A program made the position numbers and the translations under genes. The notes under the pieces are model-generated. The model did not search any database, was not told the origin of the DNA, and was given only the letters and a program-made list of their open reading frames with translations. A stretch of 44,612 bases of DNA, from positions 1 to 44,612 of the forward strand of contig JAFZKT010000066.1 of the NCBI GenBank assembly GCA_017553545.1, written 5' to 3'. How positions within the stretch are numbered: the stretch's first letter is position 1; every line of letters starts with the position of its first letter. This document shows positions 3,454-43,401 of this stretch, piece after piece. The stretch is from Bacteroidales bacterium. GTDB lineage: Bacteria; Bacteroidota; Bacteroidia; Bacteroidales; UBA932.

Positions 3454-6400
3454 TTACAGCAGTGTCGGGAGATCCGTAGCAGCGCCGGAAAGGTTCCAGA
3501 TGGTGGGATCCCAGTCTGTGCCGATCACGGAACCCGAACCCGAATGGAAGGTGGGGTAAGCGACCACTTCCGTCAAGCCGAAGTTGGTGTTGCGGCCGTG
3601 GTGATAATAGCCATAAGTAAGACCCTGGCGCTGAGGAATGGCTGCTGCCGTAGTGATGAAAGCGTGCTGCTCAATCACGTTGGCCGCGTTGCCGGGGCAA
3701 TCGTTGAAATTGGAGGCCAGCGTTTTGATTCTGTAGCAATAGTCGACCACCACCTTCGGGGAGTTGCCCTTGTTGGCATAACCGATGACCGCACCCAGAG
3801 GATAGTGCTGGTTGGAGTCTGTCACTGTGGATGTAATCGAAGGGCACCAAACCATACAGCGGGTGACGCTGAGGCCGTCTCTTTCCACCCAACCGACGAT
3901 GCCGCCAATGCCGCCGGCGTTGGTGCTGGTAACTGAACCGGCGTAATAGCAGTTCTCCAGCGTGGAAGTGCCGGCAAAGTGGTTCGACAGGAGACCGCCG
4001 GCGCGATTTTGAGCGGTCATATCGCCAGTTGCATAGCAGTTGGTGATGGTGAGGGAACCTGCTTCAGATTCTGTGGTTCTTCCCACATGGGTTCCCACAA
4101 AGCCACTGATCTGGTTACCGGTACCGACGATGGAACCGGTGGAATAACTCCTGGTAACCGAAACACTTTCACCGGGATCCTGACAGACACATCCCACAAA
4201 ACTTGCAGAATATGCATTACAGGTTACATTGCCCGTCGCATGGCTATGATCAATGGTGCCGTTTTCAATCTGACCCACAAGGCCGCCGGCACGGTTCTTT
4301 CCGGTAGCGGTTATATTCCCGCTTGCACTGCAATCGGTAATGGTGCCATCAACCACATAGCCCACCAGGCCGCCGGAATAGTGATTGGAAACAGTAACCG
4401 CAACGGAAGCGTGACAGTCGTTCAAGGTAGCATGGCTGGCAGTCACACTGCCGCCCTTGAGCATATATCCGGCGAAACCGCCCACATAACCGTAACCGGA
4501 AACAGCGCCGGACACCGTGCAATGCTCAATTATACCCAGTTGAGAGGCGGTCTCATTGTACAGATATCCCACGAAGCCGCCGATCTGGGCGCCGGCAGTG
4601 AGATTGGTCTGCGTGCTGGCGCTGCTGGAAAAGGACACAACGGCATCGGAATACTCGATGACACCGGTGTTGTAGCCCACGAAGCCACCCAGATGAAGTT
4701 CGGTGTTGGCAGCGGTGGCCGTGACGATATCCACATAAGCCGTGCAGTGGTTGTCACTATCGTCCTTGGTGATGAGACCGTAGTTGATGCCGGTGAAGCC
4801 GCCGCAGTTGAGGTTCTTCTTATTATTCACATTCTCCGCTGCCGGGAAGATAACTTTTACGTGCTGGCTGGAGGTGCCCACCGTGCAACCCTTCACCGTG
4901 TTTCTGGTGGAAAGCATCCCGGAGAAACCGCCGCCGCGGCCATAGTGCTGCTGGGCGGTGGTAAGGCCGGTCATATTGACGGTGGCGTTTGTAACGTGGC
5001 AGTCCGTGAAGGTGGAGGCGTAGTTCTCACTGCGCGCCACAATGCCGGCCGCATACGGCTTGTCGCCGGAAGTAATGGTGCCGCCGTCATAGTTACAGCC
5101 GCTCACCAGAACCTTTGCGTTGGCCCAGCCGATGAGACCGCCCACAGGGCCGCCGGTGACGTTGGTGTTGGTAATGTCGCAGTCGGTAATGGTTGCGAAC
5201 GTATCCGCCAGCGGGGCGGAATTGGAGGTGTCATTGATACCAATACGGCCGACGATGCCGCCTACCGCGCGGGTACCGTTGTTGGCCACGGTGCTGTTCT
5301 TCACGTCCACGTTGTTGATCACCGTATTGGGTTCAGTGATATAGGCCGCCAAAGCGCCGGCCACATAGGCGCCGATGTTGATGGAGCTGTGATCCAGCGT
5401 AAGGTTTCTCACCTCACCCACCAGAACATAGAACATATTGTCGTTCAGGCCGTAGATGGTCTTGTTGTTACCATCCAGATTTACGCCGCGGGTCCAGGTG
5501 TTGGAGCCGTTCTTGGTATTGTTCAGGTTCTTCCAGCTGGTCTTTCCGGAAACACCGCCGGTCCAGTCCACATCGTCCACCAGCTTGAAGTAATAGGTGA
5601 CGTCATCCGTGGTCATGGCGTCGTACATATAACTGAGCTGGTGCTTGTCACCAATCAGATAAGGATTGTCCACAGTACCGATGCCGGTATTTGACGCATT
5701 GGCAAAGCTCTCGATGTTGGCGCACTGGATACCCAGATACTGGAGGGAACCGCTGGCGATGGTGTTGTTCGCGGCGAACTCGCGGTAGGCCGAGTATTTG
5801 TCGTTTTCGCTGGCGCTCACCTGGAACTGCACCAGGATGTTGGGCAGGTTGATGGTGCCGGCAGGCAGGGTGGCATAGACATCCAGTTGATTGTCGGCGT
5901 CAAGGGCGGAATTGCCCAGCGTCACGTAAATGCGATGGTTATTCGGGGTAATCTCCTCCGGGAAGGTGAAGATGACCTTCTGTACGGAAGACTTGATGGC
6001 AGCCGGAAGGGCGGCCTTCAGTTCCAGCACAGAGGAGCCCTCATAGGTGGCACCGTGAGCGGTGGCCCAGGTCTCGGTGAAGGAGAACGAGGCGTAGCTG
6101 TCGGCGCCGGTGAGGGAGACTTCGAAGCCCAGGTGGTCAATACTGCCATCGGCGCTCTGCGTCTGATTCACATAATCAGAGACATTCGAATAGGAAATGT
6201 CATAGGGGCCCGCACCGGGATTCGAACCGGTAAACTTGGCCGATTTACCATCGGCGCTGATGGTGGTGGGGTCGATGGTGAAGGTTTCACCGTTGACGGT
6301 AATCACGTCATCGTCGTCCCATTCCACTTTGATGGGCTGTTTGACAGCATCCTGGGAAAGGGAAACCTTGGACTGTAATCCGTCCTCGGGGATGGAAGCG

Positions 6401-6516: not shown

Positions 6517-6522
6517 ACTATT

Positions 6523-6529
6523 TTCCTCC
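6523..6529 (-). promoter_or_regulatory. Strong Shine-Dalgarno GGAGGAA for the GLUG gene at 6516
   Basis: GGAGGAA lies 6 nt before ATG 6516, in the 18-nt gap after the micro-ORF stop. The same heptamer occurs before the genes at 3158 and 36762. Confidence 0.7.
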
Positions 6530-6534: not shown

Positions 6535-6672
6535 TTAAAGTTCATCGATCAGCACGACGACAGGCATATCATTAAAAGCCTCGTTACCGCTGACGTTGTC
6601 CATACAGGGCTCCGTTTCAAGAGCCAGCATCTCCACCTCGGGCGGAGCATAGTCAAGCAATTTTTTCTTCAT
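6535..6672 (-). CDS. Micro-ORF, 45 codons, between GLUG-SGNH and GLUG genes
   Basis: The frame runs from ATG 6672 to TAA 6535 and lies 11 nt after the stop of the GLUG-SGNH gene and 18 nt before the next GLUG gene. The product starts MKKKLLDYAPPEVEMLALE and ends EAFNDMPVVVLIDEL. It is charged and soluble-looking, with no signal peptide. The YAPPEVE motif and the C-terminal half match the micro-ORF at 3324. It is unrecognised; either a small protein or a translational leader. Confidence 0.65.
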   Translation of the reverse strand: MKKKLLDYAPPEVEMLALETEPCMDNVSGNEAFNDMPVVVLIDEL

Positions 6673-6683: not shown

Positions 6684-9600
6684 TTATAATTCATCTGTCA
6701 TTATCACTGGTTCTAAATCCGTAATGGTGGAATTTCCCTCCACCGGTGCACCGGAGCCACTGTTGAGCAGCCCGTCGATGATGGGTTTCACAATGCCTTC
6801 CATCACCGTATAGGCCGCAGGGCCGGGATGGAGGTCATCGTAGAGTTTATAGCAGTCCTTGAGGCCGTGGTCGATGTCTTCCGGCACAACCGTATCGGAC
6901 GAATTCCGGGCTACCAGGGCGCTCCAATAGTCGCAGTAAGTGTAGCCGACGGTGGCATCGGCCAATGCCTTGATGCGCACGTTGAGCGGCTCGATGTACT
7001 GGGCTTTGCGGCCCACAGCGCCGTAATCCCTGTTATTGGGCGTGACGGAGCAAAGAATTACCTTGATGCCGTGAGCCTTCGCCTGGGCGGCCATATAGGC
7101 GATATTGTCGTAGATATCGTCGCCACTCACGCCCTGGGCTATGTCGTTGGTCCCGCCCATCAGCACGAACACGCGCGGATTCAGGGCCAGGACATCCTTT
7201 TCGAAGCGGTTGCGCATCTGCGTGGTGTTCTGTCCGCTGATGCCTTTGTCTATGTATCCGTTCCCGGAGAAGAAGCCGGGGTGGAAGTACGTGGTGATGG
7301 TGCTGCCGCTCAGGGACATATAGTCCGGGAGAGGAGTATTACCCAATGCACCGTGGGTCTGCTCAATAATCTTGGACTGGGCGTCCGAGCGTTTTATCCG
7401 CGCCCACTGCCAGGTGATGCTGTCGCCCATAAAGATGGCCTTGATGCGGGTACTGCCGGGAGTAAGGACCGGCTGAGAGCCATTGAGGTCCCAAACATCG
7501 GCCGACCAACTCTGGGCCGATGCCCGGGAGGAAACCGTGCCGGAAGTGCCGACGTAATTGTCCGTAAAGCTGGCGCCCACGGTATTGGTGGCAACGAAAG
7601 GAAGGGATGCGTTCCAGCCGATGCAATGGTCCACGACGGCCACCGGATTGGTGCCCTGCTGGCTGCAGATCCCCACGAAGGCGCCCAGGCTTTCGCCCGT
7701 ACCGGAAATGGAGCCCGCGCTGTAGCAGTTGAACAGATGCGCGTTGTAAAGGTTGGTGGCAAAACCGGCCACATACTTATAGTTCCCCCCTACGACGGAA
7801 GCCGTGGTATAGCAGTACTCCAGGTTTCCGTTATTGACGAAGGCCGAGAAACCGGCGCAGGAGTTCGCGTTCGCCGTTGCGCTGCCGCCGGAAACATAGC
7901 TGCGGGAAATGTCTCCATACTGCACGCCCACGAAACCGCCCGTATACTGGCCGCCGGACACGGAAGTATTCTGCACGTAGCAGTCCGTGACGGTGAGGTC
8001 ATTGGCGCCGGTGGAGTTGTAGCCCAGCTGGCCCACGAAACCGCCCGTGCGTCCGCCCGCAGGAACGCTCACACTAGCGTTCTGCACATAGCAGCCGACG
8101 AGGGAAACGCCCGTATGGACAAATCCCACGAAGCCGCCGCAGCCGGCACTGCTTCCGCTGGCCGAACTGGCAAGCGTGCCGCCGGCATAATGGCAGGCGG
8201 TGAAGGAGGCATTTTCTGCCTGTCCCACGAAACCGCCGGCATAGACGTATTCCGTATTGACATCGCCGGTGGCGCTGCAGCCCGTGAAAGCGGCTGCGCC
8301 GGAGGCATAGCCCACAAAGCCACCGGTCTTCTGGGTATTCCCCGTAACGGTGACCGAGGCGGCCGAAGAACAGTCTTTATAGGCGTCCGGAACATAGGCC
8401 CAGCCCACGAAACCGCCCACGCTGTTGGCCTTGGCGGTGACGGAACCTGTAACCGTGCAGCCCTGGTAATTGGAGCCGGCATAGAGGGTGCAACCCACGA
8501 AGCCGCCCACGTTCTGCATCGCGGACTGCGTGGCCGTCACCGCCGTTCCCGTCACTTCGCAGTCGATGAATGACAGCGCCTGGGCCACTCCGCCGGCAAA
8601 ACCACCGGTGTAGATGGAGCCGCTGCCTGCAGTATTGGTCTGGTTCACAGACACGTTCTGCACCTTGCACTCCTTGAAGATGGAGGGAACCTCATAGCCG
8701 CCGGAGATGCCGCCATAGCCCATAAAGCCGCCTAGGTGGTAGATACCCGAAACGGAGGAATTGGTCACGCGGCAGTTCTCATAGCCGGCCGATTTATCGT
8801 TGAATCCAACGAAACCGCCGGTTTCGGCCTTGCCGGAGATGCTCACATCGGGGCCTTCCACATAGCAGTCCTCGAAGGACGGTTTGTCGGAGGCGATGTA
8901 GCCGATGAAGCCGCCCACATAAACTCTCTGATCCGTGGTGACGTCCGCAGTGGCGGAGATGTTCATGGGACCGTCCACGTGACAGCCGTCGAACGTAGCG
9001 TTGGCCGTGGTGCAGCCCACAAAACCGCCCAGGCCCTGTTTCGCCGCAGGCGTAGTATTATAGGTAAGGGTTAAATTCTTGACATAACAATCCTCCAGTT
9101 TGGCGTTCTGAGCACGCACGATGGCGGTGAAACCGCCCATGTGGGAGGTGTTGGCCGCGATGGAGGTGTTTTCCACCGAACAGCCTTTCAGCGTGCCGGT
9201 GGTATTGATTTCGGCGGCAAAACCGCCCACCCAGTTTGAACTGCCGGAAACCGACGAGTTCTTCACATGGACATTGGTGCAGTTTCCCACCACGTTCGTG
9301 GTGCCGACGAAGCCGCCCACCACACCGATCTTGGAAGTGTGGTTGACGGTAGCCCCGTCGAAGGTCACGTCGTGGAGGAGTCCGTTCAGCACGCCGGTGA
9401 AGGAGGCGTAGTTGGCCCCCGTAGAAGTCAGGTGGGAGATGCTGTGGCCGTCTCCGTCAAAATCCATCGCCTTGTCGAAGGGGCTGGCCGCATTCAGCGG
9501 CGCCCAGTTGGTGATGGATGAAGCGTCAATGTCCTCCAGCAGGCGGAAATACTTGGTCTCCCCTGCCGCCAGCACGCCGCTGTTATGCATATTGTTCAGT

Positions 9601-10478
9601 TGCCGGGCGTTGGCGATGAGGTAAGGATTCCCCTGGGTGCCGTCACCCGCCACGAAGTCCTGCAGGGACAGCGTGAGGGCCGTAGCGTGCCCGCCGAAGG
9701 AGTTCATCTTCCCCTGCATAACGGTCTTGTCCCCGCTGATGGGAATCTGGAAGCCGTAAGCCTCATTGTCCGCATCCAGCGCGTAGACGGAAACCTTGGT
9801 GCCGTTAGGGAGCGGAATGTCCTCCCAGGGCAGCATAATGAAAGCCGTGAGTTTCTGGGCCGATGCACTCACATCCACCCCGCTCAGCGGCACGGTGTAG
9901 TTCTCCCCGCCCAGCATAATGCCGGCCTTGGTGAGAGACGTGACACCGGAAGGAAGCGTGGCCACCAGCTTCACGGCAGCGCCCTGTTTGAGGGTGCCGC
10001 CGTGAGTCTGGGCCCAACTGTCCTTAAAGGCGATTTCCTCGTAGGTGTCAACGCCGGAGAGGAGGGCGCGGAAACGAAGGTGGGCGGTGCTGCCGTTCCC
10101 CACCTGGGTGGGAGAGGTGACATCGGCCACGGCTTCGGCCACGCTCGCGTACGTGCCCGGATAAAGGATGTCAAAGGAGGAGCCAGCCACGGCAGGGCCG
10201 GTGAATTCGGCCACGTGGTCGGAGATGATGTTGGAGATGTTGTACACCGCCGAATTCTCTCCGGAAATCACGCGGATGCAATCCGTATCTTCCCAGGCTG
10301 TCTTCAGTTTCCCCTCTTCCTCGGTGAAACTCATTTTCGTGTACGGCTCTTCGGGGACGGCCACCCGGATGGTGACCATCCGGACGTTCCCCGAAACGGG
10401 ACCCGCCTCCTCCTTGACGCAAGACAAAACGCCAAGGAGGAGCAGGATGCTTCCCGCCAACAGTGCTGTCCTTTTCAT
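6684..10478 (-). CDS. GLUG lipoprotein fused to a C-terminal SGNH/GDSL esterase
   Basis: The 1264-aa product starts MKRTALLAGSILLLLGVLSC (lipid Cys20). Residues ~30-280 are a fimbrillin-like domain (VTIRVAVPEE, WEDTDCIRVISG) and ~290-1000 are GLUG-like repeats ending SADVWDLNGSQPVL. Residues ~1012-1235 are an SGNH hydrolase: GDSIT with nucleophile Ser1020, a GISGQN block, GGTND with Asn1111, and YDDLHPG with Asp1214/His1217. The family includes carbohydrate deacetylases and other esterases, so removal of acyl groups from a bound glycan is inferred. ATG 10478 is chosen over GTG 10484 because it begins the usual MKR signal. A micro-ORF lies 12 nt upstream and another 11 nt downstream, suggesting one transcript. 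Confidence 0.9.
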   Translation of the reverse strand: MKRTALLAGSILLLLGVLSCVKEEAGPVSGNVRMVTIRVAVPEEPYTKMSFTEEEGKLKTAWEDTDCIRVISGENSAVYNISNIISDHVAEFTGPAVAGSSFDILYPGTYASVAEAVADVTSPTQVGNGSTAHLRFRALLSGVDTYEEIAFKDSWAQTHGGTLKQGAAVKLVATLPSGVTSLTKAGIMLGGENYTVPLSGVDVSASAQKLTAFIMLPWEDIPLPNGTKVSVYALDADNEAYGFQIPISGDKTVMQGKMNSFGGHATALTLSLQDFVAGDGTQGNPYLIANARQLNNMHNSGVLAAGETKYFRLLEDIDASSITNWAPLNAASPFDKAMDFDGDGHSISHLTSTGANYASFTGVLNGLLHDVTFDGATVNHTSKIGVVGGFVGTTNVVGNCTNVHVKNSSVSGSSNWVGGFAAEINTTGTLKGCSVENTSIAANTSHMGGFTAIVRAQNAKLEDCYVKNLTLTYNTTPAAKQGLGGFVGCTTANATFDGCHVDGPMNISATADVTTDQRVYVGGFIGYIASDKPSFEDCYVEGPDVSISGKAETGGFVGFNDKSAGYENCRVTNSSVSGIYHLGGFMGYGGISGGYEVPSIFKECKVQNVSVNQTNTAGSGSIYTGGFAGGVAQALSFIDCEVTGTAVTATQSAMQNVGGFVGCTLYAGSNYQGCTVTGSVTAKANSVGGFVGWAYVPDAYKDCSSAASVTVTGNTQKTGGFVGYASGAAAFTGCSATGDVNTEYVYAGGFVGQAENASFTACHYAGGTLASSASGSSAGCGGFVGFVHTGVSLVGCYVQNASVSVPAGGRTGGFVGQLGYNSTGANDLTVTDCYVQNTSVSGGQYTGGFVGVQYGDISRSYVSGGSATANANSCAGFSAFVNNGNLEYCYTTASVVGGNYKYVAGFATNLYNAHLFNCYSAGSISGTGESLGAFVGICSQQGTNPVAVVDHCIGWNASLPFVATNTVGASFTDNYVGTSGTVSSRASAQSWSADVWDLNGSQPVLTPGSTRIKAIFMGDSITWQWARIKRSDAQSKIIEQTHGALGNTPLPDYMSLSGSTITTYFHPGFFSGNGYIDKGISGQNTTQMRNRFEKDVLALNPRVFVLMGGTNDIAQGVSGDDIYDNIAYMAAQAKAHGIKVILCSVTPNNRDYGAVGRKAQYIEPLNVRIKALADATVGYTYCDYWSALVARNSSDTVVPEDIDHGLKDCYKLYDDLHPGPAAYTVMEGIVKPIIDGLLNSGSGAPVEGNSTITDLEPVIMTDEL

Positions 10479-10490
10479 AGGCACAGTTAT

Positions 10491-21168: not shown

Positions 21169-21180
21169 TGCTGGATTCAA

Positions 21181-24459: not shown

Positions 24460-24513
24460 TGTTAATTGGTTTAGTAGTGTATATTTTGAGCAAATACTTG
24501 CATCATTAGGAGG

Positions 24514-24544
24514 CAAAGATAACTCTTTTGCGCGCGCAAACAAC
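24514..24544 (-). promoter_or_regulatory. Promoter of the leftward susC operon
   Basis: On the minus strand GTTG (24544-24541), 19 nt, then TATCTTTG (24521-24514). It matches the Bacteroidetes TTTG/TAnnTTTG pattern apart from one -33 base. A TTTG 4 nt closer gives only a 15-nt spacer. The leader to ATG 24459 is about 50 nt. Confidence 0.75.
24527..24540. promoter_or_regulatory. 14-bp perfect palindrome in the susC promoter spacer (possible operator)
   Basis: TTTGCGCGCGCAAA is its own reverse complement and fills most of the spacer between the -33 and -7 boxes. A related GCGCGC element lies at the same position in the rightward susC promoter. Operator function is inferred. Confidence 0.45.
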
Positions 24545-25915: not shown

Positions 25916-25947
25916 TTTGGTATTGAGCGCGCGAATGCGTATCTTTG
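25916..25947 (+). promoter_or_regulatory. Promoter of the rightward susC operon
   Basis: TTTG (25916-25919), 20 nt, then TATCTTTG (25940-25947): a full match to the Bacteroidetes consensus. The spacer contains GAGCGCGCGAA, whose GCGCGC core ends 7 nt before the -7 box. Confidence 0.8.
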
Positions 25948-25954
25948 GGGGTTA

Positions 25955-25968
25955 TAACTGTACAGTTA
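25955..25968. promoter_or_regulatory. 14-bp perfect palindrome at the predicted transcription start of the rightward susC
   Basis: TAACTGTACAGTTA equals its reverse complement and begins 7 nt after the -7 box, so it would cover the start site and early leader. It has no loop, so a protein-binding site is likelier than an RNA hairpin. Function is inferred. Confidence 0.45.
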
Positions 25969-26004
25969 GAACACCGGATAACAACTAATCCAATCATAAC
26001 TAAC

Positions 26005-34386: not shown

Positions 34387-34757
34387 TGAAATTAGCCGGC
34401 GCAGTATCACTCCTTCTTTTAGCCCTGTCGTGCTCCTGCCTCCAAGGCGGGAGCACGGAAGGTGCTGAAACGCCGGAACAGGGCATCCTGCTGAAGCCCC
34501 TTAATATCAGCACGGCGGAAGACGGCACGGTCACGGTCCTTTATCGGCATACGGCCGAAGACTGTATGTGCACCTCCGAACCCCACATCGAAGGCCCGGA
34601 CCCGGAAGTCTGGACCGTTACGGTAAACGATTTTGACGCGCCCGTGGTTGGTGGCCGTTATTTTATCGGCGGCCTGGCGCACGAAGGCGAGAATACAATA
34701 GAAATACACGGAAGCGGGAATATTCCCCGCGTCCACCTGGTTACGAATAATCTATAA
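34386..34757 (+). CDS. Small unrecognised lipoprotein coupled to the TIG-NAGPA gene
   Basis: The 123-aa product starts MKLAGAVSLLLLALSCSC, with Cys16 or Cys18 as the likely lipid site. The ~100-residue mature part looks like one beta-sandwich (GTVTVLYRHTAEDCMCTSEP, WTVTVNDFDAPVVGGRYFIGG, NTIEIHGSGNIPRVHLV). A DCMC motif adds two Cys. No family is recognised. Its ATG overlaps the preceding stop in TGATG, and the next gene starts 13 nt later. Tight coupling suggests a partner of the TIG-NAGPA protein. Confidence 0.75.
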   Translation: MKLAGAVSLLLLALSCSCLQGGSTEGAETPEQGILLKPLNISTAEDGTVTVLYRHTAEDCMCTSEPHIEGPDPEVWTVTVNDFDAPVVGGRYFIGGLAHEGENTIEIHGSGNIPRVHLVTNNL

Positions 34758-34770: not shown

Positions 34771-36585
34771 ATGTCCAAAAAATTCTTCAGCGCAGCCCTC
34801 GTTGCTGCAGCAACTCTTTTCCTGGCAGCCTCTTGCCAGAAGGGTGACGGCACCGTCGTCATCAACATCAAAGCGCAGATGCCCTCGGCCGAAATCGCCG
34901 GCCAGGTAAGCTCCGCCATTATCACTGCGGACAAAGACATCTTCGCGGAAGGTAACTCCATCGAGGTCGCAGACCCTGTGATTCAGGAAGACTTCGTGCA
35001 ACTGAGCGTCAAGGCCAAGGCGGCCGATGCCAAATCCCTCCTGGTGGTATTCAACACCCCGGAGGCTGAGCAAAAATGCTACAGCGCCTTCGTGGAACCG
35101 GCCGGAAAGACCGATATCGAGCTTGACGCCCGCTACACCAACTACAGCGCCGGCGCCCTGGACGACGGTTCCTTTGAGCATCCGTTTCTCATCGCCGACA
35201 AATACCAGATGCTGGCGATGCACGACGAACTCGTAAAGGACGATGTGAAGAGTTTCAAGATGGTGGCCGACGTTGACCTCTCCGGCATCAACTGGAAGCC
35301 GCTGAACAACGTGGACCTGACCGACGACGGCAAGGGCTACACCAAAGCCATCAACTTCGACGGCGACGGCCATACCATCTCCAACCTCACCAGCGAATGG
35401 GTTCTCTCTGAAGGCGATGTAGACCTTTACGCCTATCCCAGCTTCGCGGGTATCCTGGCCGGTCAGATCAACAACGTTACCTTCGACCACGCCACCATTA
35501 CCACCCTCGGCAGAGCCGGCGGTGTGGTAGCCGGATATCTGGGTCACGGAGACAGCGGCGTCACCGCCAACTGTTCCAACGTGGTTATCAAGAACTCCAC
35601 CGTGAATGCCGGGAACAAGTATGCCGGCATCTTCGCCGCAACGGCCAACCGGCTGGGCATCCTGTTCAACTGCGGCGCAGTCAAATCCAGCGTTACCTCC
35701 ACCACCGCCCGCGTCGGTGGTCTCATCGGTTCGCTGGGCCAGTTCAACGAGATTAAAGACTGCTATACGGAAGATGTGGAAGTAACTGCCGGCAGCTACT
35801 ATGCAGGCGGCCTCATTGGTGAAATGCAGTATGCTTCCGTTATTGATAACTGCCACGCTACCGGTAAAGTCACCAACAACGTCACCAACTACGCCCGCAG
35901 CGGCGGTCTCATCGGCCGTCTCCAGGGCGAACTGAAAAACAGTTATGCAGACTGTGAAATCGTGAGCAACAACGGTGCCGGTGGACAGTTCAACGGCGGC
36001 CTGGTGGGCGACATCGTGGAAGGCAAGACCGTCTCCATCACAGGTTGCCACGCGGCCGGCTCCATCACCGCCACCAACTATTTCGCCGGTGGTTTAATCG
36101 GCCTTGTGGAAAAGAACTCCGCCGTTACCATCGACAAGTGCTACACCACGGTTTCCATTGAGAACGGCTCCAAAGCAAAGGCTGCGGGCTTCATTTCTTC
36201 CATCGATACCGGTGTCAGCCTCACCATTTCCAACAGCTACGCCACCGGCACCGTCAACTGCGGCAATCCCGGCAGCGGCTTCATCGGCGCAACCAACGCC
36301 GGCACCCTGGCGCTCAATGTGACCAACTGCTACACCACCGCCGCCCTGCAGGGGACCAGCAATGGCGCGCTCATCGCGGATAGCCTGATGCCTGCCGCCA
36401 AAGTGAACTGCGCCGGTTACATCGCATGGTGGGCCGCCGGCAACCTGGTTGCCTCCGGCAACACCGGCATCACCGCTCCCGTTTCCTATGTGGGCAATGC
36501 GGGTACGCTGAGCGCCAAGGCTACGGAGTTTAACTGGGACACCAACATCTGGGATCTCAGCGGTGCTACTCCCGTCCTGAAATAA
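34771..36585 (+). CDS. GLUG-repeat surface lipoprotein
   Basis: The 604-aa product starts MSKKFFSAALVAAATLFLAASC (Cys22), then KGDGTVV. Residues ~28-125 form a beta domain distinct from the fimbrillin-like ones (VVINIKAQMPSAEIAGQV, LLVVFNTPEAEQKCYSAFV). HPFLIADKYQMLAMHDELV leads into GLUG-like repeats (GGLIGEMQYASVIDNCHATG, GGLIGRLQGELKNSYADCE) and the final NWDTNIWDLSGATPVLK. No enzyme domain is visible. It is followed 20 nt later by a micro-ORF. A surface-binding role is inferred. Confidence 0.88.
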   Translation: MSKKFFSAALVAAATLFLAASCQKGDGTVVINIKAQMPSAEIAGQVSSAIITADKDIFAEGNSIEVADPVIQEDFVQLSVKAKAADAKSLLVVFNTPEAEQKCYSAFVEPAGKTDIELDARYTNYSAGALDDGSFEHPFLIADKYQMLAMHDELVKDDVKSFKMVADVDLSGINWKPLNNVDLTDDGKGYTKAINFDGDGHTISNLTSEWVLSEGDVDLYAYPSFAGILAGQINNVTFDHATITTLGRAGGVVAGYLGHGDSGVTANCSNVVIKNSTVNAGNKYAGIFAATANRLGILFNCGAVKSSVTSTTARVGGLIGSLGQFNEIKDCYTEDVEVTAGSYYAGGLIGEMQYASVIDNCHATGKVTNNVTNYARSGGLIGRLQGELKNSYADCEIVSNNGAGGQFNGGLVGDIVEGKTVSITGCHAAGSITATNYFAGGLIGLVEKNSAVTIDKCYTTVSIENGSKAKAAGFISSIDTGVSLTISNSYATGTVNCGNPGSGFIGATNAGTLALNVTNCYTTAALQGTSNGALIADSLMPAAKVNCAGYIAWWAAGNLVASGNTGITAPVSYVGNAGTLSAKATEFNWDTNIWDLSGATPVLK

Positions 36586-36743: not shown

Positions 36744-36748
36744 GCATT

Positions 36749-36755
36749 GGAGGAA
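36749..36755 (+). promoter_or_regulatory. Strong Shine-Dalgarno GGAGGAA for the GLUG-NAGPA gene at 36762
   Basis: GGAGGAA sits 6 nt before ATG 36762. It rules out the in-frame TTG at 36747, which it overlaps, as the start. Confidence 0.7.
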
Positions 36756-36761
36756 GAAACT

Positions 36762-39700
36762 ATGAAAAAGACTTTTAGACTTTTTGTTGCCCTGATGGCC
36801 GGCGCGGCTCTGCTCTCCTCCTGCGTGAAGGAAGCCAAGAACTTCGACGGCAACGCTCCTGTCACCATCCGTGTGAACATCCCTGAAGAAGGCCTCGCAA
36901 AAGTGGCCGTCAACCAGGACGCCAGCAACGTAACCGGCGGTATGAAAACCCTCTTTGAGGCCACCGACGTCATTACCGTCAAGAATGCGGCCAACGAGGC
37001 CCAGTCCGTGGATTTCGCCCTTCAGAGCGGCGCAGGTACCACCTCAGCCGAATTCAAGGCCGTGGGCGGCGCTTCCGCCCTTGCCGGTGCCACCAGCTAC
37101 AACATTTACCTCGTCAGCAACATGCCCTCCGGCTTCGACGAGCAGACGCAGGCCGCCGACAACAGTTCGGCGCACCTGGGCTTCTCGGTGAAACTCGCGG
37201 GCGTGAACACCTACGACGGCGCCACCTTCACATCGGCCTGGGCCAGCTCCAATGGCGGCGGCACCCTGGAGGCCTCTTCGGTGCTCCGTCTCCGCGCCAA
37301 TATGCCCAATGCCACCCGCGCCGACCAAGTGCAGAAGGTGACCATCAAGTCCACCTCGGACCTATTCGAAGGCCAGAAGGAAATGGTGATCAATATCACC
37401 TCACCCGGTGTCTCCGGCAGCAGCAAGGTGGTTACGGTGTTCGCTACGCTCCCGGCCGGTGACGTCATCCTCCCCTCAGGAACAGAACTCCTGTTCCAGT
37501 TCCAGTGCTCGGACGACGTGAACGACAAGTACACCGCCTACCGTAAGCTGAGCTCCGCGATGACCCTCACGGGAGGTACGGTCAACAGCTTCAACATCGA
37601 CTGCCCCAACATCCTTTCCTATGCAGGTAAGGACGACGACGGCAGCGAATCCAAGCCTTACCTCATCGGCGACCGTCATCAGCTGGACAAGATGCGCGAC
37701 GAACTGGTGAACGGCGTCCGCAAATACTTCAAGATGGTGGACGACGTGGACCTCACCGGCATCAACTGGGTGCCCGTGAGCCAGAACGCCGACGCCCAGG
37801 CAGACTTCAACGGAAACGGCCACACCATTAACAACCTGACCATTTCCAGCCCCACCGTCACCTACGTGGGCCTCTTCGGTCTGTTGTACGGACACGTCAA
37901 AAACCTGATTCTCGACGGTGCCAATATTGATGGCGGAGACAAACTCAGCGCATTCGTTATGGGCCGTACCGGTGCCAGTTCCTATGCGGCTGAATTCACC
38001 AACGTCACCGTCCGCAATTCCACGCTGACTGCAAACAACAACTACGTGGGCGGCCTGTGCGGCTATGTCAAGAAGAGCAACGGTATCACCAACTGCCATA
38101 TTATCGACTGCTCCATTACCAACACCAAAACCGGGGCCGCCAACCTTACCGGTGGCCTGGCGGGATGGATGGGGCCCAATGGCGGCTGCACCGTTTCGGA
38201 CTCCTCCGTTGACCGCTGCACCATCTCCGGCGGCGTAACCAATACCAACCAGTCCGGTCTCGGCGGTCTCTTCGGCCGTATTGAAGCCAGCGGCGTCGTC
38301 CTCACGCGTTGTCACGCAGCCGACGGTGTCATCGCCCCCGCCAATGCCAACAATGTGGGCGGCCTGGTGGGTGATATCGCTACAGGCACGGATATCGTCA
38401 TTCAGAAGTGCTATACCACCATTAAGATTCAGCGCGGTTATACCAATGCCGGCGGCCTGGTGGGCAGAATCAAGCCGGACACCGGTGTCACCATCGACCA
38501 CTGCTACTCCTCCAGTGAACTTTCCCTGAAGGGCGGTTACGGCGGCAAGGGCGGCCTGGTGGGTATCATCCTGAGCCCGAACGTGACGATGAAGGAAAGC
38601 ATCGCCTGGAACAGCTCCATCGGCGCAGGACATGCCACCGACGATGCCAGTTCCGGCGCCGTGGTAGGCGTTACCTGGCCTGTTTGCACCCTCACGAAGA
38701 ACTACCGCAAACCGGGAATCACGTACAACGGTTTTTACTGGGCGCCCAGCACCAACTGGGACCACGCGGACGTAAGCAGCACCAATAAGCTTATAGTGCT
38801 GGACACCAGCGATCCCGTGGAGAGCGAAGCGGACAACACAACCGCCACATCCATCACCCTGGACGGCAACAATCAGCCCACCGGTCAATACAACTGGGCC
38901 TACCACGGCCACAGGATTTCCAACGGCGCCGTTGTCTCTCCCGATGACACCTACGGCTGGGTATCCGACAAACAGGTGGGCGACATTACCGTTCCCACGG
39001 ACACTGACCCTGAGAACCCGTCTTACACCGGAAACAATGTCTGGAGCGCATGGTCCAGCGCCACAAAGCACACCATCGTCAGCGGTGTCCAGTATGCCAA
39101 CTTCCACGGCACCTGGCAGAGCAAGACGCGTGAAATCAACATCGTCATCACCGAAATCAACTCCCACAACAAGTTGAAGATCTACTACAACTATGTGGAG
39201 GACGGCAAGAAGTACCTGGATGAAAAGTGCAACCTGGTGACCAACGCCGTCGCCGGCACCAACGGCTCCATGACTTCCCAGTTCGTCCGCGTGGACGGCT
39301 CCGTGAAGAGATCCGCCGGTACCATGAGCGAATGGACCAACAACTGCGCCCTCACCATTGACGGCGACAAGGTGGACATCGTAAAGGTGGCCAGCAACTT
39401 CGAGGCCGCCACGCTGCCCAACAACACGGTGGCCTGCGCCGGTCCGCTGCTGGTATGGAAGGGTTACAAGCAACTTGCCACGGCCGAATGGAAGGCAGCC
39501 GACACCGACGCCTGGCTCACCACCACGCACCCGCGTACCGCCATCGGCGTTACCAAGGACGGCAAGGTGATTCAGGTGACTGTGGACGGCCGCTGGTCCG
39601 GAAGCGGCGCCCAGGCGGCCACGGGCATGTCCACCGATACGCTGGCCGAGCTGATGCTTGAACTGGGCTGCTACAAGGCCATGAACTTCGACGGCGGCGG

Positions 39701-39875
39701 CGGATCCCAAATGTGGGTTTATGGCTACGGTGACAAACACAACATCGTGAACCACCCCCACAACTCCTGGCCCACCTACGAAAGCAACTCCAACGAATAC
39801 TATTGGATCAAAGACAATGAGGCGGCCCGCCGCACCACCTGCTGCGCCGTCTATGTCCAGAGCGACCTGAAGTAG
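36762..39875 (+). CDS. GLUG lipoprotein fused to a C-terminal phosphodiester glycosidase (NAGPA/DUF2233)
   Basis: The 1037-aa product starts MKKTFRLFVALMAGAALLSSC (Cys21). Residues ~28-285 are a fimbrillin-like domain (VTIRVNIPEEGLAKV, FEATDVITVKN), ~295-700 GLUG-like repeats (GGLVGRIKPDTGVTIDHCYS), ~757-1037 a NAGPA domain: ANFHGTWQSKTREINIVITE, AVAGTNGSMTSQFVRVDG, HPRTAIGVTKDG, IQVTVDGRW and MNFDGGGGSQMWV (Met974, Asp977). This domain is close to that of 33121-34386, so one probably gave rise to the other. It is the last gene before the terminator at 39900. Expected role: holding a glycan and cutting sugar-1-phosphodiesters at the cell surface. Confidence 0.9.
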   Translation: MKKTFRLFVALMAGAALLSSCVKEAKNFDGNAPVTIRVNIPEEGLAKVAVNQDASNVTGGMKTLFEATDVITVKNAANEAQSVDFALQSGAGTTSAEFKAVGGASALAGATSYNIYLVSNMPSGFDEQTQAADNSSAHLGFSVKLAGVNTYDGATFTSAWASSNGGGTLEASSVLRLRANMPNATRADQVQKVTIKSTSDLFEGQKEMVINITSPGVSGSSKVVTVFATLPAGDVILPSGTELLFQFQCSDDVNDKYTAYRKLSSAMTLTGGTVNSFNIDCPNILSYAGKDDDGSESKPYLIGDRHQLDKMRDELVNGVRKYFKMVDDVDLTGINWVPVSQNADAQADFNGNGHTINNLTISSPTVTYVGLFGLLYGHVKNLILDGANIDGGDKLSAFVMGRTGASSYAAEFTNVTVRNSTLTANNNYVGGLCGYVKKSNGITNCHIIDCSITNTKTGAANLTGGLAGWMGPNGGCTVSDSSVDRCTISGGVTNTNQSGLGGLFGRIEASGVVLTRCHAADGVIAPANANNVGGLVGDIATGTDIVIQKCYTTIKIQRGYTNAGGLVGRIKPDTGVTIDHCYSSSELSLKGGYGGKGGLVGIILSPNVTMKESIAWNSSIGAGHATDDASSGAVVGVTWPVCTLTKNYRKPGITYNGFYWAPSTNWDHADVSSTNKLIVLDTSDPVESEADNTTATSITLDGNNQPTGQYNWAYHGHRISNGAVVSPDDTYGWVSDKQVGDITVPTDTDPENPSYTGNNVWSAWSSATKHTIVSGVQYANFHGTWQSKTREINIVITEINSHNKLKIYYNYVEDGKKYLDEKCNLVTNAVAGTNGSMTSQFVRVDGSVKRSAGTMSEWTNNCALTIDGDKVDIVKVASNFEAATLPNNTVACAGPLLVWKGYKQLATAEWKAADTDAWLTTTHPRTAIGVTKDGKVIQVTVDGRWSGSGAQAATGMSTDTLAELMLELGCYKAMNFDGGGGSQMWVYGYGDKHNIVNHPHNSWPTYESNSNEYYWIKDNEAARRTTCCAVYVQSDLK

Positions 39876-39965: not shown

Positions 39966-42029
39966 ATGAAAAAACTGATAACCACTCTCCTGTTATCCGT
40001 GTGCCTGACGGGCCTCTGCCTTGCGCAGAGCACAAGGAGCGCCGGATCTTTCTATGTCTATGACTATGAGCATCCCGCGGCCCTGACGGCGGCGCCGGAA
40101 GGCTATGAGCCCTTCTATATCAGCCATTTCGCCCGGCACGGCGCGCGCTACTGCACCAGCGAGTACGACGGACTCTATGAGATTCTGTCCAAAGCGGCGG
40201 CGGAAGGGGTTCTCACTGAACAGGGAAAGGCTTTCTTTGACCGTTACAAACCCTTTTACGGGAAGGTGAAGGACTGCAAGGGCAACCTGACGGGCGTTGG
40301 GAAAGCGCAGCACCGCGCCATCGCGGAGCATATGTACGCGCGTTTCCCGCAGGTATTTGAGGGCCCTACGCACGTGGAAGCCGTTTCCACGGAAGCGGCC
40401 CGCGTGATCATGAGCATGTGGTCCTGCCTGAACGGCCTCACGGCGCTGGACAGGGACCTGTCCGTTTCGGCCGATGCCTCCGCAAAATACGCCTCCTGGC
40501 TGCAGCCGAATCTTTCTTCCAATCCCTACTATAACAAGAAGGCTTTCGCCTACGGGAAGACCGCAAACGACGCCGCAGCAGAGTATTTCCGCCAGGTTGT
40601 CCCCTGCAAGGAGATTGTGGAACGCTTCTTCACTTCGGAGGATGCCCTGAAAGACTTGAACGCTTCGTCGCAGCGGTTTTTGGACCTGCTGCACTCCGTG
40701 GTGGTGAGCACCTGGTGCCTGGATGAAGACCGCGGCTGTTTCGACGACGTCCTGTCCCCGGAGGAGAGCGAGGCCCTCTGGAAGGGCATGTCCACCGGGT
40801 TCACCCTGTATTCCGGCCACTATGAGGGGTCGGAATGCCGGTGGCAAGATTATGTGACGGGCTTCACCATTCGGCAAATTATTGAATCGGCCGATGCAGA
40901 CATCGCCTCCGGCAAGACGCAACTGCGCCTTCGTTTCGGGCACGACGCCGCCCTGGCTCCCCTGCTCGCCGCGCTGGATGTGAACAGCTATGGCCGGGTG
41001 TCTTCCACCTTCGATGAGGCCCGGGAGATTTACCCCAGCTACGCGGTTCCCATGGGCTGCTCCCTGCAGCTGGTGTTTTACCGGAACGCCGACGGAGATA
41101 TCCTCTTGAAGGCGCTGGTGAACGAATCAGAGGCCACCCTGCCGCTGGAGCCCGTGAGCGGCCCCTATTACCGCTGGAGTGATTTCAAGGAGTATTTTCT
41201 GCCCCGCGTCTATGCCTCTTATTATAATGTAAAGGCTTATGAGCCGCTGGCCGTGCTGAAAGCAACGGATTGGGGATGGAAGCCGGTGGAAAACTCCAAG
41301 GTGGAAGCCGGCGGCGCCACGCTGAAAGTGTTCGGCGGCACACAGACCGTTTCCCTGATTCGCTTCCCCATGAAAGACCACGCCGTTTCCGTTGTCTCCG
41401 CACCGGGCGCCAAAGCCGGCGTTACCAGTCAGTTGGCAGTCCAGAATAAGGCCCTGGCAGCCGTCAACGGCAGTTTCTTCGACGGAGACAACATGCCCAT
41501 CACCTATCTGAAAGACGAAGGGCGCGTGGTGAGTAAGCGCGTGGACGGTGAGGCGAATCTGTTCAACGGCATGTTCCGGATCAAAGATAAGAAGGGCCGT
41601 TTCGTGGATATTACCGTCGTGGATTCTTTGAGTACGGCTGCGGCGGCTAAGGGCTGGCGGGAGGCCATCGTCTCCGGCCCCGTGCTTTTAAACGAGGGAC
41701 AGCCCGTCTATTATCAGAACGATGGCAGCCGCACCTATCGGCGTTTCTATCGCCGCAGGCATCCGCGTACCCTGCTGGGCTATACGCAGGACGGCTGGAT
41801 GTATTTCATCGTGGTGGACGGCCGCTTCCCCCTGGCCGACGGCATGAACGTCTTCGAAATGCAGGTCCTCTGCCAGTCCCTGGGGCTGTATGAAGCGTTG
41901 AACCTGGATGGCGGCGGGTCCGCCACTATGTGGGCCAGCGGCCTGGGAGTGCTGAATCACCCCTACGACAACCAGGTCTTCGACCACGAGGGCGAACGCG
42001 TGGTTCCCAATGCAATTATCGTTAAATAA
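39966..42029 (+). CDS. Histidine acid phosphatase fused to a phosphodiester glycosidase (NAGPA/DUF2233)
   Basis: The 687-aa product has a type I signal (MKKLITTLLLSVCLTGLCLA). Residues ~45-420 are a clade-2 histidine phosphatase: FARHGARYC with catalytic His58, and LRFGHDAAL with His326-Asp327 as the proton donor motif; inositol-phosphate phosphatases of gut Bacteroides belong to this clade. Residues ~445-687 are a NAGPA domain: AAVNGSFFDGD (499-509), RHPRTLLGYT, FIVVDGR (614-620) and LNLDGGGSATM (646-656). Both active sites look complete, so this is a likely two-step enzyme: open a sugar-1-phosphodiester, then remove the exposed phosphate. It has its own promoter and ends 1 base before the GH109 gene. 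The substrate is unknown. Confidence 0.92.
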   Translation: MKKLITTLLLSVCLTGLCLAQSTRSAGSFYVYDYEHPAALTAAPEGYEPFYISHFARHGARYCTSEYDGLYEILSKAAAEGVLTEQGKAFFDRYKPFYGKVKDCKGNLTGVGKAQHRAIAEHMYARFPQVFEGPTHVEAVSTEAARVIMSMWSCLNGLTALDRDLSVSADASAKYASWLQPNLSSNPYYNKKAFAYGKTANDAAAEYFRQVVPCKEIVERFFTSEDALKDLNASSQRFLDLLHSVVVSTWCLDEDRGCFDDVLSPEESEALWKGMSTGFTLYSGHYEGSECRWQDYVTGFTIRQIIESADADIASGKTQLRLRFGHDAALAPLLAALDVNSYGRVSSTFDEAREIYPSYAVPMGCSLQLVFYRNADGDILLKALVNESEATLPLEPVSGPYYRWSDFKEYFLPRVYASYYNVKAYEPLAVLKATDWGWKPVENSKVEAGGATLKVFGGTQTVSLIRFPMKDHAVSVVSAPGAKAGVTSQLAVQNKALAAVNGSFFDGDNMPITYLKDEGRVVSKRVDGEANLFNGMFRIKDKKGRFVDITVVDSLSTAAAAKGWREAIVSGPVLLNEGQPVYYQNDGSRTYRRFYRRRHPRTLLGYTQDGWMYFIVVDGRFPLADGMNVFEMQVLCQSLGLYEALNLDGGGSATMWASGLGVLNHPYDNQVFDHEGERVVPNAIIVK

Positions 42030-42030
42030 T

Positions 42031-43401
42031 ATGAGAAGATTCTTCACCCTTGCCGTTTTGGCACTGGCGTTTGTCGCCTGCTCCCAGGAGCAAATCATCC
42101 GTGTTCCCGTTCCGGCACGTCCAGCCGGACAGAAAGATGTGATTGGCCTTACCGCTCCCCCGCTGGATACCGTCCGGATTGGCGTAGTGGGTATCGGCAT
42201 GAGGGGCTATCACGCCCTGCGCGTCCTTCCCGCCGTTCCCGGCGCGAAGATTACCGCCATCTGCGACCTGCGGGAAGAAGCCGTCAAGAAAGGCCAGGAA
42301 CGTCTGGCTTCGGAAGGCCAGCCGTTCGCACAGGAATACTACGGAGAAGAAGAATCCTGGAAGGGCCTTTGCGAGCAGGAGGATGTGGACCTGGTGTACA
42401 TCTGCACGGACTGGCTGCATCACGCCCCCATCGCCCTCTATGCCATGGATCAGGGCAAGCACGTTGCCATCGAGGTTCCCGCCGCCCTGAATATGGACGA
42501 AATCTGGGCCCTCATCAACAAGGCCGAAGAAAAACGCCTCCACTGCATGATGCTGGAGAATTGCGTTTATGATTTCTTTGAACTTTCCTGCCTCCAGATG
42601 GCGCAGGACGGCATGTTCGGGGAAGTGCTCCACGCCGAGGGCGCCTATCATCACGACCTTAACGCCTTCTGGCACGAGTACTGGAACAACTGGCGGCTGG
42701 ACTATAATAGCAAGAACCGGGGAGATAATTATCCCACGCACGGCATCGGCCCCATCTGCCAGGTGCTGAATATCCACCGCGGAGACAGGATGGAACGCCT
42801 GGTGTCCATGGATACCAAGGTGTGCAACGGTCCCAAGATGATGAAGTTCTATGCCGGGAAGGAATGTCCGGACTTCGCCCAGGGAGATGAGACCAACACC
42901 CTCATCCGGACTGCCGGCGGCAAAACCATGCTCATCCAGCATGACGTGATGACACCGCGCCCCTACGACCGCCTGTATCAGCTGGTGGGCTCCGACGGCT
43001 ATGCCGGAAAGTATCCTGTGCAGCAGCTCTGCTTCAATCAGGAAATGCCGGAAGAAGTGGATGCCGAACATCTTCCGTTGGAAAAGATTTTCACGGGAGA
43101 CGAACTCAAGGCATTGATGGACGAGCATCGGCCCGCCATACTCACGGAAGAACTGGAAGCCCGCGCCAAGCAGGTAGGCGGGCACGGCGGCATGGACTTC
43201 ACTATGAACTACCGCCTCATCTACTGCCTCCGCAATGGCCTGCCGCTGGATATGGACGTATATGACCTGGCCGAATGGTGCTGCATTGCGCCGCTCTCCC
43301 GCCTGTCCCTTGAAAACGGCAACATGCCGGTGGAAGTCCCTGACTTCACCCGCGGCGCCTGGAACAAGGTCCAGGGCTACAAACACGCCCTGGCAGATTA
43401 A
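42031..43401 (+). CDS. GH109-type NAD-dependent alpha-N-acetylgalactosaminidase (Gfo/Idh/MocA fold), lipoprotein
   Basis: The 456-aa product starts MRRFFTLAVLALAFVAC (Cys17). Residues ~48-170 are a Rossmann NAD-binding domain (VRIGVVGIGMRGYHAL with GIGMRG at 54-59; KHVAIEVPAALNMDE). The C-terminal part has blocks typical of GH109: YPTHGIGPICQVLNIHRGDRM and GGHGGMDFTMNYRLIYCLRN, then LPLDMDVYD. GH109 enzymes use NAD+ to cleave alpha-GalNAc. ATG 42031 is chosen over ATG 42010, which lies inside the previous gene and before the signal peptide. It is one base after the phosphatase-NAGPA stop and so co-transcribed. A related oxidoreductase-like activity cannot be excluded. Confidence 0.88.
   Translation: MRRFFTLAVLALAFVACSQEQIIRVPVPARPAGQKDVIGLTAPPLDTVRIGVVGIGMRGYHALRVLPAVPGAKITAICDLREEAVKKGQERLASEGQPFAQEYYGEEESWKGLCEQEDVDLVYICTDWLHHAPIALYAMDQGKHVAIEVPAALNMDEIWALINKAEEKRLHCMMLENCVYDFFELSCLQMAQDGMFGEVLHAEGAYHHDLNAFWHEYWNNWRLDYNSKNRGDNYPTHGIGPICQVLNIHRGDRMERLVSMDTKVCNGPKMMKFYAGKECPDFAQGDETNTLIRTAGGKTMLIQHDVMTPRPYDRLYQLVGSDGYAGKYPVQQLCFNQEMPEEVDAEHLPLEKIFTGDELKALMDEHRPAILTEELEARAKQVGGHGGMDFTMNYRLIYCLRNGLPLDMDVYDLAEWCCIAPLSRLSLENGNMPVEVPDFTRGAWNKVQGYKHALAD

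What the first reader, a model, noticed from the sequence alone, without database searches (positions are those of the whole stretch)
3454..43401. Divergent twin susCD loci with five phosphodiester-glycosidase (NAGPA) domains
Seen: two susCD pairs diverge from one centre, and NAGPA domains with the DGGG motif occur in five proteins (10651, 13997, 33121, 36762, 39966 genes). Most glycan loci are built around ordinary glycoside hydrolases; here only a GH109-like gene is present. Known: NAGPA/DUF2233 enzymes cleave sugar-1-phosphodiesters, as in the human uncovering enzyme. Inference: the locus harvests a phosphodiester-bearing glycan such as yeast phosphomannan, a phospho-linked capsule or teichoic polymer, or host phosphoglycans.
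Basis: partly seen in the sequence, partly recalled or inferred. Interest (0 to 1): 0.85.

Follow-up and report, generated by a model that had tools for sequence, protein, structure and literature searches.

The report
Twin loci for phospho-linked glycans
A gut bacterium, probably from a ruminant, carries two back-to-back nutrient-uptake gene clusters rich in enzymes predicted to cut sugars off phosphate bridges, plus a fused enzyme predicted to remove the phosphate afterwards, which suggests an undescribed way of eating phosphate-linked glycans.

Summary
Two paralogous SusCD pairs diverge at about 25 kb, and five proteins carry NAGPA (PF09992) domains above Pfam's cut-off. The leftward cluster runs off the contig; contig C2, whose end overlaps the window's by 382 nt (98.95%), carries a second HAP-NAGPA fusion with an Exo_endo_phos gene beside it. 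Fusions occur in at least 22 of 101 genomes of the genus, in both domain orders, and are not one clade for either domain. None showed up in the other 392 order-level or 384 phylum-level genomes screened (two candidates scored per genome). Invariant residues of both domains are kept. Unfused NAGPAs mostly look like lipoproteins, fusions mostly do not. Best reading: PULs that open sugar-1-phosphodiesters, then strip the exposed phosphate. It works like the mannose-6-phosphate uncovering step followed by a phosphatase, but for food. The substrate (wall or capsular glycopolymer, phosphomannan, protist phosphoglycan) is unresolved and no activity has been tested. Ten full-text searches listed no description of such loci, but the listings were capped.

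The parts
3..3191 (-). GLUG-repeat lipoprotein, cut by the contig end (PUL-A); its 3' part appears to lie on contig C2
   Evidence: PF07581 E=8.8e-30; lipobox AAAC; overlap with C2
3454..6531 (-). GLUG-repeat lipoprotein, paralogue of the previous gene
   Evidence: PF07581 E=5.8e-19; 45% identical to W01
6684..10484 (-). GLUG-repeat lipoprotein with C-terminal SGNH/GDSL esterase domain
   Evidence: PF13472 E=1.3e-19, PF07581 E=1.9e-13
10651..13977 (-). GLUG-like lipoprotein with C-terminal NAGPA domain
   Evidence: PF09992 47.6 bits; GLUG-like part by similarity only; 3ohg E=1.6e-4
13997..15145 (-). stand-alone NAGPA lipoprotein
   Evidence: PF09992 80.4 bits
15148..17469 (-). GLUG-repeat lipoprotein
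   Evidence: PF07581 E=3e-11
17482..19338 (-). BT_3987-like N (DUF1735) lipoprotein with GLUG-like part (by similarity), possible surface glycan-binding protein
   Evidence: PF08522 E=1.3e-10
19351..21180 (-). SusD1
   Evidence: PF07980 E=3.1e-44
21181..24543 (-). SusC1 (first ATG inside the ORF at about 24459)
   Evidence: TIGR04056 818 bits
24631..25836 (-). lipoprotein of unknown family between the two SusC genes; homologue (62%) in L026
   Evidence: no Pfam or NCBIfam match
25945..29289 (+). SusC2 (first ATG inside the ORF at about 26005)
   Evidence: TIGR04056 862 bits
29304..31121 (+). SusD2
   Evidence: PF07980 E=2.5e-47
31143..33128 (+). BT_3987-like N + GLUG lipoprotein, possible surface glycan-binding protein
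   Evidence: PF08522 and PF07581; PDB 3n6z E=2e-11
33121..34386 (+). TIG + NAGPA lipoprotein
   Evidence: PF09992 86.2 bits, PF01833; 3ohg E=1.3e-11
34386..34757 (+). small lipoprotein; homologues in L044, L047 and L050; that of L044 has a weak Glyco_hydro_2_N match below cut-off
34771..36585 (+). GLUG-repeat lipoprotein
   Evidence: PF07581 E=4.2e-8
36747..39875 (+). GLUG-like lipoprotein with C-terminal NAGPA domain (ATG at about 36762)
   Evidence: PF09992 97.7 bits; GLUG-like part by similarity only
39966..42029 (+). histidine acid phosphatase (HD type) fused to NAGPA; N-terminal signal-like stretch without lipobox, so probably periplasmic
   Evidence: PF00328 40.1 bits and PF09992 128.3 bits; 7r5y E=2.1e-50; NAGPA enzyme 6pku E=1.2e-9; residues; signal
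42010..43401 (+). GH109-like lipoprotein (alpha-N-acetylgalactosaminidase family)
   Evidence: PF21252 E=8.9e-35; 6t2b E=3.7e-81 with GGHGGMDF kept

Best explanation
The window holds two divergent, paralogous polysaccharide-utilisation loci for a glycan that contains sugar-1-phosphodiester links. Surface lipoproteins (NAGPA alone, TIG-NAGPA and GLUG-NAGPA) meet the polymer on the cell surface with the help of GLUG and BT_3987-type proteins. They hydrolyse the sugar-P bond of sugar-1-P-O-R, freeing the sugar and leaving a phosphomonoester on R. SusCD import the pieces. In the periplasm the HAP-NAGPA fusion takes off remaining phosphodiester-linked sugars and strips the exposed phosphate, so the chain becomes ordinary sugar. 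An SGNH esterase, Exo_endo_phos and GH109 remove other decorations. Shown: gene content, domain identity, kept invariant residues, fusion in two orders, recurring neighbours. Inferred: catalysis on phosphodiesters, the order of steps, the compartments (from signal sequences), the binding role of the GLUG and BT_3987-type proteins, and that the sugar is an N-acetylhexosamine. The polymer is not identified.
For: All five NAGPA domains pass Pfam's cut-off; the fused one matches the solved NAGPA enzyme 6pku at E=1.2e-9 with the N, R, D, N and D positions aligned. N501, D618, N646 and D648 are kept in 80 of 81 related domains and R601 in 81 of 81. The HAP half keeps R57, H58, R61, R146, H326 and D327 in 45-46 of 46, the one miss a cut sequence. 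There are 32 distinct HAP/NAGPA fusions, 27 in one order and 5 in the other. One clade of fusions is rejected in the NAGPA tree (p-AU 5e-17) and the HAP tree (p-AU 1.3e-5). Exo_endo_phos abuts or overlaps the PUL-A-type fusion gene in 6 loci, including contig C2. The same HAP domain is fused to GDPD in L089, L091 and L093, to calcineurin-like phosphoesterase in L074 and L082 and to GH92 in L077. HexNAc enzymes stand with it: NAGLU fused to HAP in L031, GH20 and a GH2 with a glucosaminidase Ig domain in L023, GH109 in the window. Of listed NAGPA matches, 21 of 150 lie within 10 kb of a listed HAP match against 2.8 expected. Lipobox by a home-made rule: 50 of 57 unfused NAGPA proteins, 2 of 31 fused.
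Against: No biochemistry or expression data. Among the solved NAGPA-family chains matched, only 6pku, 6pky, 6pki and 6pkg bear an activity name; 3ohg, 6ozd, 6u11 and 5h3k do not. The HAP domain in this genus is also fused to GH2, GH106 and BNR proteins, so NAGPA is one partner of several. Repeated fission of an old fusion could explain part of the tree pattern, though not the swapped order. The co-location test used truncated lists (150 and 149 matches) and ignored relatedness. 32 of 58 fetched NAGPA loci had no SusC/SusD hit in the stretch held, partly because stretches were short; but in G016 the PUL-B-type genes have an OEP gene, not SusCD, upstream (L044), and other fusions lie beside housekeeping-like genes. 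The join to C2 is 98.95%, not exact, and an apparent toxin-antitoxin pair lies between the cut GLUG gene and Exo_endo_phos. Three of the six Exo_endo_phos loci (L005, L006, L073) are near copies.
Confidence: 0.6

Rival explanations
1. Yeast or fungal phosphomannan is the target: NAGPA removes Man-1-P caps from mannan side chains and HAP removes the phosphate, in cooperation with a separate alpha-mannan PUL of the same genome.
For: The own genome carries GH92, GH76 and SusD within about 6 kb on contig C12; HAP is fused to GH92 in L077. That a bacterial glycosidase can uncap such phosphodiesters is recalled (Tiels et al. 2012, seen here only as a title in the reference list of PMC12024695; its GH92 family is recalled).
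Against: No GH76 or GH92 match among the window proteins scanned. The C12 cluster has no NAGPA match. Among fusion neighbours scanned, HexNAc enzymes and a GH106, not mannosidases, were found.
Confidence: 0.2
2. Gram-positive wall or capsular glycopolymers are the target. NAGPA would cut GlcNAc-1-P-6-hexose links such as the teichoic-acid linkage unit (chemistry recalled), SGNH would remove ester groups, GDPD and Exo_endo_phos relatives would work on the polyol-phosphate part.
For: GDPD fused to the same HAP domain in L089, L091 and L093 and beside a fusion in L060; Exo_endo_phos beside fusions; HexNAc enzymes; NAGPA joined to a TelC domain and sometimes an NlpC/P60 peptidase in Bacillota proteins, and to calcineurin-like phosphoesterase surface proteins (passages of PMC12419801 and PMC11188070).
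Against: No GDPD or peptidoglycan-enzyme match among the window proteins scanned.
Confidence: 0.3
3. Phytate or phosphate scavenging: the fused phosphatase is a MINPP-like phytase and NAGPA is an incidental domain.
For: After 7r5y the best solved relatives are MINPP chains such as 5cu7 (E=8e-27); phytate is a plausible substrate in a ruminant gut (own knowledge).
Against: The HAE tripeptide that marks MINPP (PMC3969271 passages) is HD in 46 of 46. It does not explain five NAGPA proteins, SusCD or GLUG proteins. The fusions are not one clade and come in both orders.
Confidence: 0.1
4. NAGPA and GLUG proteins form an adhesive or self-glycan-remodelling surface system, and the SusCD pairs import something else.
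For: GLUG or GLUG-like proteins are numerous, and the 31143 protein matches a putative IgA1 protease structure, 3n6z. Several fusions in relatives stand outside SusCD clusters.
Against: From susC to the last NAGPA gene the gaps are -8 to 161 nt in both clusters. The NAGPA domains keep their invariant residues. The susC-susD-BT_3987-NAGPA order recurs in other genomes.
Confidence: 0.1

Closest known systems
Mannose-6-phosphate uncovering enzyme, NAGPA (6pku, 6pky; species not shown by the call, animal by recall)
   Same: Same family by sequence (E=1.2e-9), with N, R, D, N and D positions and the DGGG motif aligned; would perform the same chemistry, removing a sugar from a sugar-1-P-hexose diester.
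   Different: Bacterial, secreted, in nutrient-uptake loci, joined to GLUG-like or TIG domains or to a phosphatase; a proposed catabolic rather than sorting role.
DUF2233 protein of PDB 3ohg (Bacteroides ovatus BACOVA_00430, recalled)
   Same: Nearest solved chain for the 33121 and 10651 NAGPA domains (E=1.3e-11 and 1.6e-4).
   Different: Listed as uncharacterised; its locus was not examined here.
NAGPA joined to calcineurin-like phosphoesterase or TelC domains in bacterial surface or toxin proteins (PMC11188070, PMC12419801; passages seen)
   Same: NAGPA combined with another phospho-active or wall-active enzyme on one secreted protein.
   Different: Different partner superfamily; no SusCD import is described in the passages seen; roles proposed there are sporulation matrix or conflict.
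MINPP (BtMinpp, BT_4744; PMC3969271 passages seen)
   Same: Histidine phosphatase branch 2 by sequence (MINPP chains E about 1e-26).
   Different: HD in place of HAE; RHGARYC in place of RHGxRxP; fused to NAGPA.
Yeast alpha-mannan PULs of Bacteroides (recalled; GH76/GH92)
   Same: SusCD-based harvest of a glycan that can carry phosphodiesters.
   Different: Built around GH76/GH92; neither was found in the window.

Membership tests
Sus-type polysaccharide utilisation locus | adjacent SusC and SusD homologues | tested here: met
   two pairs
Sus-type polysaccharide utilisation locus | co-directional lipoproteins and degradative enzymes | tested here: met
   lipoboxes and domains
Sus-type polysaccharide utilisation locus | induction by and growth on a glycan | not testable with these tools
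   no culture data
NAGPA / DUF2233 phosphodiester glycosidase family | score above the Pfam cut-off and the family's invariant N, R, D, N, D residues (catalytic role inferred) | tested here: met
NAGPA / DUF2233 phosphodiester glycosidase family | hydrolysis of sugar-1-phosphodiesters | not testable with these tools
   needs assay
Histidine acid phosphatase (branch 2, HD type) | RHGxR nucleophile motif, second Arg (recalled), HD proton-donor motif | tested here: met
   R57 H58 R61 R146 H326 D327; motif roles from PMC3969271 passages
MINPP | HAE tripeptide in place of HD | tested here: not met
   HD in 46 of 46; definition from PMC3969271 passages
GH109 | GH109 C-terminal domain, close solved GH109 relative, GGHGGMD signature (signature recalled) | tested here: met
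Yeast alpha-mannan PUL | GH76 and GH92 in the locus | tested here: not met
   no match in the window proteins scanned; present on contig C12

The most novel reading that the evidence does not exclude
A previously undescribed catabolic 'uncover then dephosphorylate' system: Bacteroidales of the ruminant gut use expanded surface NAGPAs and a bifunctional periplasmic HAP-NAGPA enzyme, arisen more than once and in both domain orders, to eat phosphodiester-linked glycans. The HAP domain acts as a hub that has been joined to NAGPA, GDPD, calcineurin-like phosphoesterase, NAGLU, GH92, GH106 and GH2 partners, marking a hidden class of phospho-glycan-degrading enzymes.
Probability: 0.45. Interest if true: 0.78.

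Novelty: new variant of a known kind. Interest (0 to 1): 0.62.

Why it matters
Gut glycan degradation is usually read from glycoside hydrolases and lyases, so loci built on phosphodiester chemistry are easily overlooked. If right, this gives a route by which gut bacteria use phosphate-bridged glycans of microbes, fungi or protists. It supplies candidate uncovering enzymes, some already fused to a phosphatase, for glycan analysis or for lysosomal-enzyme glyco-engineering. It also makes it possible to ask directly which phosphodiester glycans are eaten in the gut.

Tried and rejected
MINPP/phytase filing was rejected on the HAE test. Fission of one old fusion was considered; it cannot explain the swapped domain order but is not excluded for the rest. 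A wider distribution of the fusion was looked for and not found: with the 12-row fusion profile A4, 393 genomes of the order and 385 of the phylum (own genome included in each; the draws overlap in part) gave full-length matches at E <= 1e-60 only in the own genome. Only two candidates per genome were scored, so rare or distant fusions may be missed. Ten full-text searches listed no paper on NAGPA-bearing SusCD loci. Their listings were capped (for instance 20 of 38, 12 of 264 and 15 of 1,165 papers shown), and the library lacks most subscription papers, including the two NAGPA structure papers looked up. Promoter-like and terminator-like sites in the centre were no more numerous than in shuffles, although one terminator-like stem of 15 pairs lies at 24591-24556. 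No tRNA in the window. Repeats found mostly reflect paralogous genes.
Full report
Setting. The window is G000:C66:1-44612 of a 1.76 Mb MAG (80.5% complete, 4.5% contamination). Its origin is not named. A search of named genome assemblies with the 39966 protein gave 15 loci; seven titles name a yak, sheep, goat or water-buffalo gut site, and five bear RUG codes (rumen, by recall). A ruminant gut origin of the window is therefore likely but not shown. The end of rpoC lies at the right edge. In L026 the same rpoC neighbourhood carries the PUL-A SusCD genes and an unfused HAP.

Observation. Two divergent SusCD pairs and five NAGPA proteins are confirmed. SusC1/SusC2 and SusD1/SusD2 are paralogues at 53% and 49% identity. 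I call the leftward cluster PUL-A and the rightward one PUL-B. PUL-A runs SusC, SusD, BT_3987-type, GLUG, NAGPA, GLUG-NAGPA, GLUG-SGNH, GLUG, GLUG, and then leaves the window. PUL-B runs SusC, SusD, BT_3987-GLUG, TIG-NAGPA, a small lipoprotein, GLUG, GLUG-NAGPA, HAP-NAGPA, GH109.

Beyond the window. The right end of contig C2 overlaps the window's first 382 nt at 98.95%, so the join is likely but not exact. C2 carries the end of the cut GLUG gene, then an apparent toxin-antitoxin pair (by eye), an Exo_endo_phos lipoprotein (PF03372 E=1.4e-20) and, 2 nt further on, a 704-aa HAP-NAGPA fusion. If the join is right, each of the twin clusters has one fusion at or near its distal end. A third SusCD cluster on contig C74 has NAGPA matches at four places and a separate HAP gene. 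Of 11 SusD matches in the genome, four (two on C66, one each on C74 and C82) have a NAGPA match within 5 kb. The genome also has one GH92/GH76/SusD cluster on C12.

The fusion. The 39966 protein matches histidine acid phosphatase 7r5y (E=2.1e-50) over residues 24-411, and its C-terminal part matches the solved NAGPA enzyme 6pku (E=1.2e-9). Invariant residues of both halves are kept: R57, H58, R61, R146, H326 and D327 in 45-46 of 46 HAP domains; N501, D618, N646 and D648 in 80 of 81 and R601 in 81 of 81 NAGPA domains. The proton-donor motif is HD in 46 of 46, not the HAE that marks MINPP (passages of PMC3969271). The catalytic role of the NAGPA residues is inferred from their invariance.

Distribution. 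After removal of five loci that repeat the same contig, 32 fused proteins were in hand: 27 HAP-NAGPA and 5 NAGPA-HAP. They occur in at least 22 of the 101 genus genomes examined: 20 seen in fetched stretches and two more, G089 and G017, by Pfam matches in one frame. Only part of the NAGPA loci were fetched, so this is a lower bound. G000, G016, G028, G060 and G073 have both a PUL-A-type and a PUL-B-type fusion; in the last four they lie on different contigs. In G073 and G028 both types have SusCD beside them; in G016 the PUL-B-type genes do not, an OEP gene lying upstream instead; in G060 the contigs end too soon to tell. With profile A4 only the own genome gave full-length matches among 393 order-level and 385 phylum-level genomes, two candidates scored per genome. 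In the family-level search with the window protein (299 genomes, at most three candidates scored, capped list), the listed near-full-length matches (G000, G290, G016, G073, G374, G350, G072) are all in the window's genus.

Repeated origin. In trees of 81 NAGPA and 46 HAP domains the three architecture labels need 6 and 8 changes. Forcing all fusions into one clade is rejected: p-AU 5e-17 for NAGPA and 1.3e-5 for HAP (43 rows, three very divergent HAP rows dropped). These are quick trees with some long branches, and the groups were named after the sequences were seen. The two domain orders by themselves point to at least two joining events.

Neighbours. Exo_endo_phos abuts or overlaps PUL-A-type fusions in L037, L051, L006, L073, L005 and L072 (L005, L006 and L073 are near copies) and abuts a NAGPA gene in L009; in L067 and L063 a weaker relative lies about 5 kb away. 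GDPD stands beside a fusion in L060, GH106 beside one in L057. In the same genus the HAP domain is fused to GDPD (L089, L091, L093), calcineurin-like phosphoesterase (L074, L082), NAGLU (L031), BNR (L028), GH92 (L077), GH106 (L080) and a LacZ-type GH2 (L075). This cuts both ways: it fits a phospho-glycan role for the phosphatase, but NAGPA is not its only partner. Some neighbours fit no glycan story (RecJ in L022, an ABC transporter in L024, SIR2 in L057, an S41 peptidase in L072, lactate dehydrogenase, enolase-superfamily and beta-lactamase-like genes in L054, cyclophilin in L055). Of 58 fetched NAGPA-bearing loci, 26 also held a SusC or SusD homologue and 32 did not in the stretch held.

Compartments. 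With a home-made lipobox rule, 50 of 57 unfused NAGPA proteins and 2 of 31 fusions score as lipoproteins; three proteins cut at their 5' ends were left out. All 31 fusions have a hydrophobic N-terminal stretch; in the two flagged ones a signal-peptidase-I-like end (CLAQ, SAQ) follows the cysteine. This suggests surface NAGPAs and periplasmic fusions.

Mechanism. NAGPA would free the sugar from sugar-1-P-O-R and expose a phosphomonoester, which the HAP would remove. This order of events is inferred from the chemistry of the families, not shown. NAGLU, GH20, GH2 and GH109 genes nearby suggest that N-acetylhexosamine is involved, but this is weak. Wall or capsular glycopolymers, phosphomannan and protist phosphoglycans all remain open.

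Literature. Seen: listings of 10 searches; passages of PMC12419801, PMC12024695, PMC11188070 and PMC3969271. Not seen: the structure papers of Das et al. 2013 and Gorelik et al. 2020 (not held). No listing showed a report of NAGPA-bearing SusCD loci or of HAP-NAGPA fusions; the listings were capped.

Verdict. A real, recurring and apparently undescribed variant of a PUL built on phosphodiester chemistry.

Noticed in passing
window 3178-3324(-), 6535-6672(-), 10491-10625(-), 36606-36743(+): Small ORFs of 44-48 aa with a shared pattern (Y..P..E...L..E....S) lie directly upstream of GLUG or GLUG-like genes; similar ones precede such genes in L042, L014 and L008. The four window peptides have no Pfam or NCBIfam match.
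   Followed up: partly
L037 about 2950-3800 (contig C2, minus strand): An apparent Phd/RelE-type toxin-antitoxin pair lies between the cut GLUG gene and the Exo_endo_phos gene (by eye in the translation).
   Followed up: no
L074, L075, L077, L080, L082, L089, L091, L093, L031, L028: The histidine acid phosphatase domain is fused to many different partners in this genus (calcineurin-like phosphoesterase, GH2, GH92, GH106, GDPD, NAGLU, BNR), which deserves its own survey.
   Followed up: partly
L026 1-13876: Next to rpoC another MAG has the PUL-A SusCD genes with a DUF6377 protein and an unfused HAP 62% identical to the window's, without the PUL-B SusCD.
   Followed up: partly
G000 C12 25838-31858 (L094): The own genome has a GH92/GH76/SusCD cluster like an alpha-mannan PUL.
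   Followed up: partly
window 24631-25836: Lipoprotein without any family match, sitting between the two divergent SusC genes; homologue in L026.
   Followed up: no
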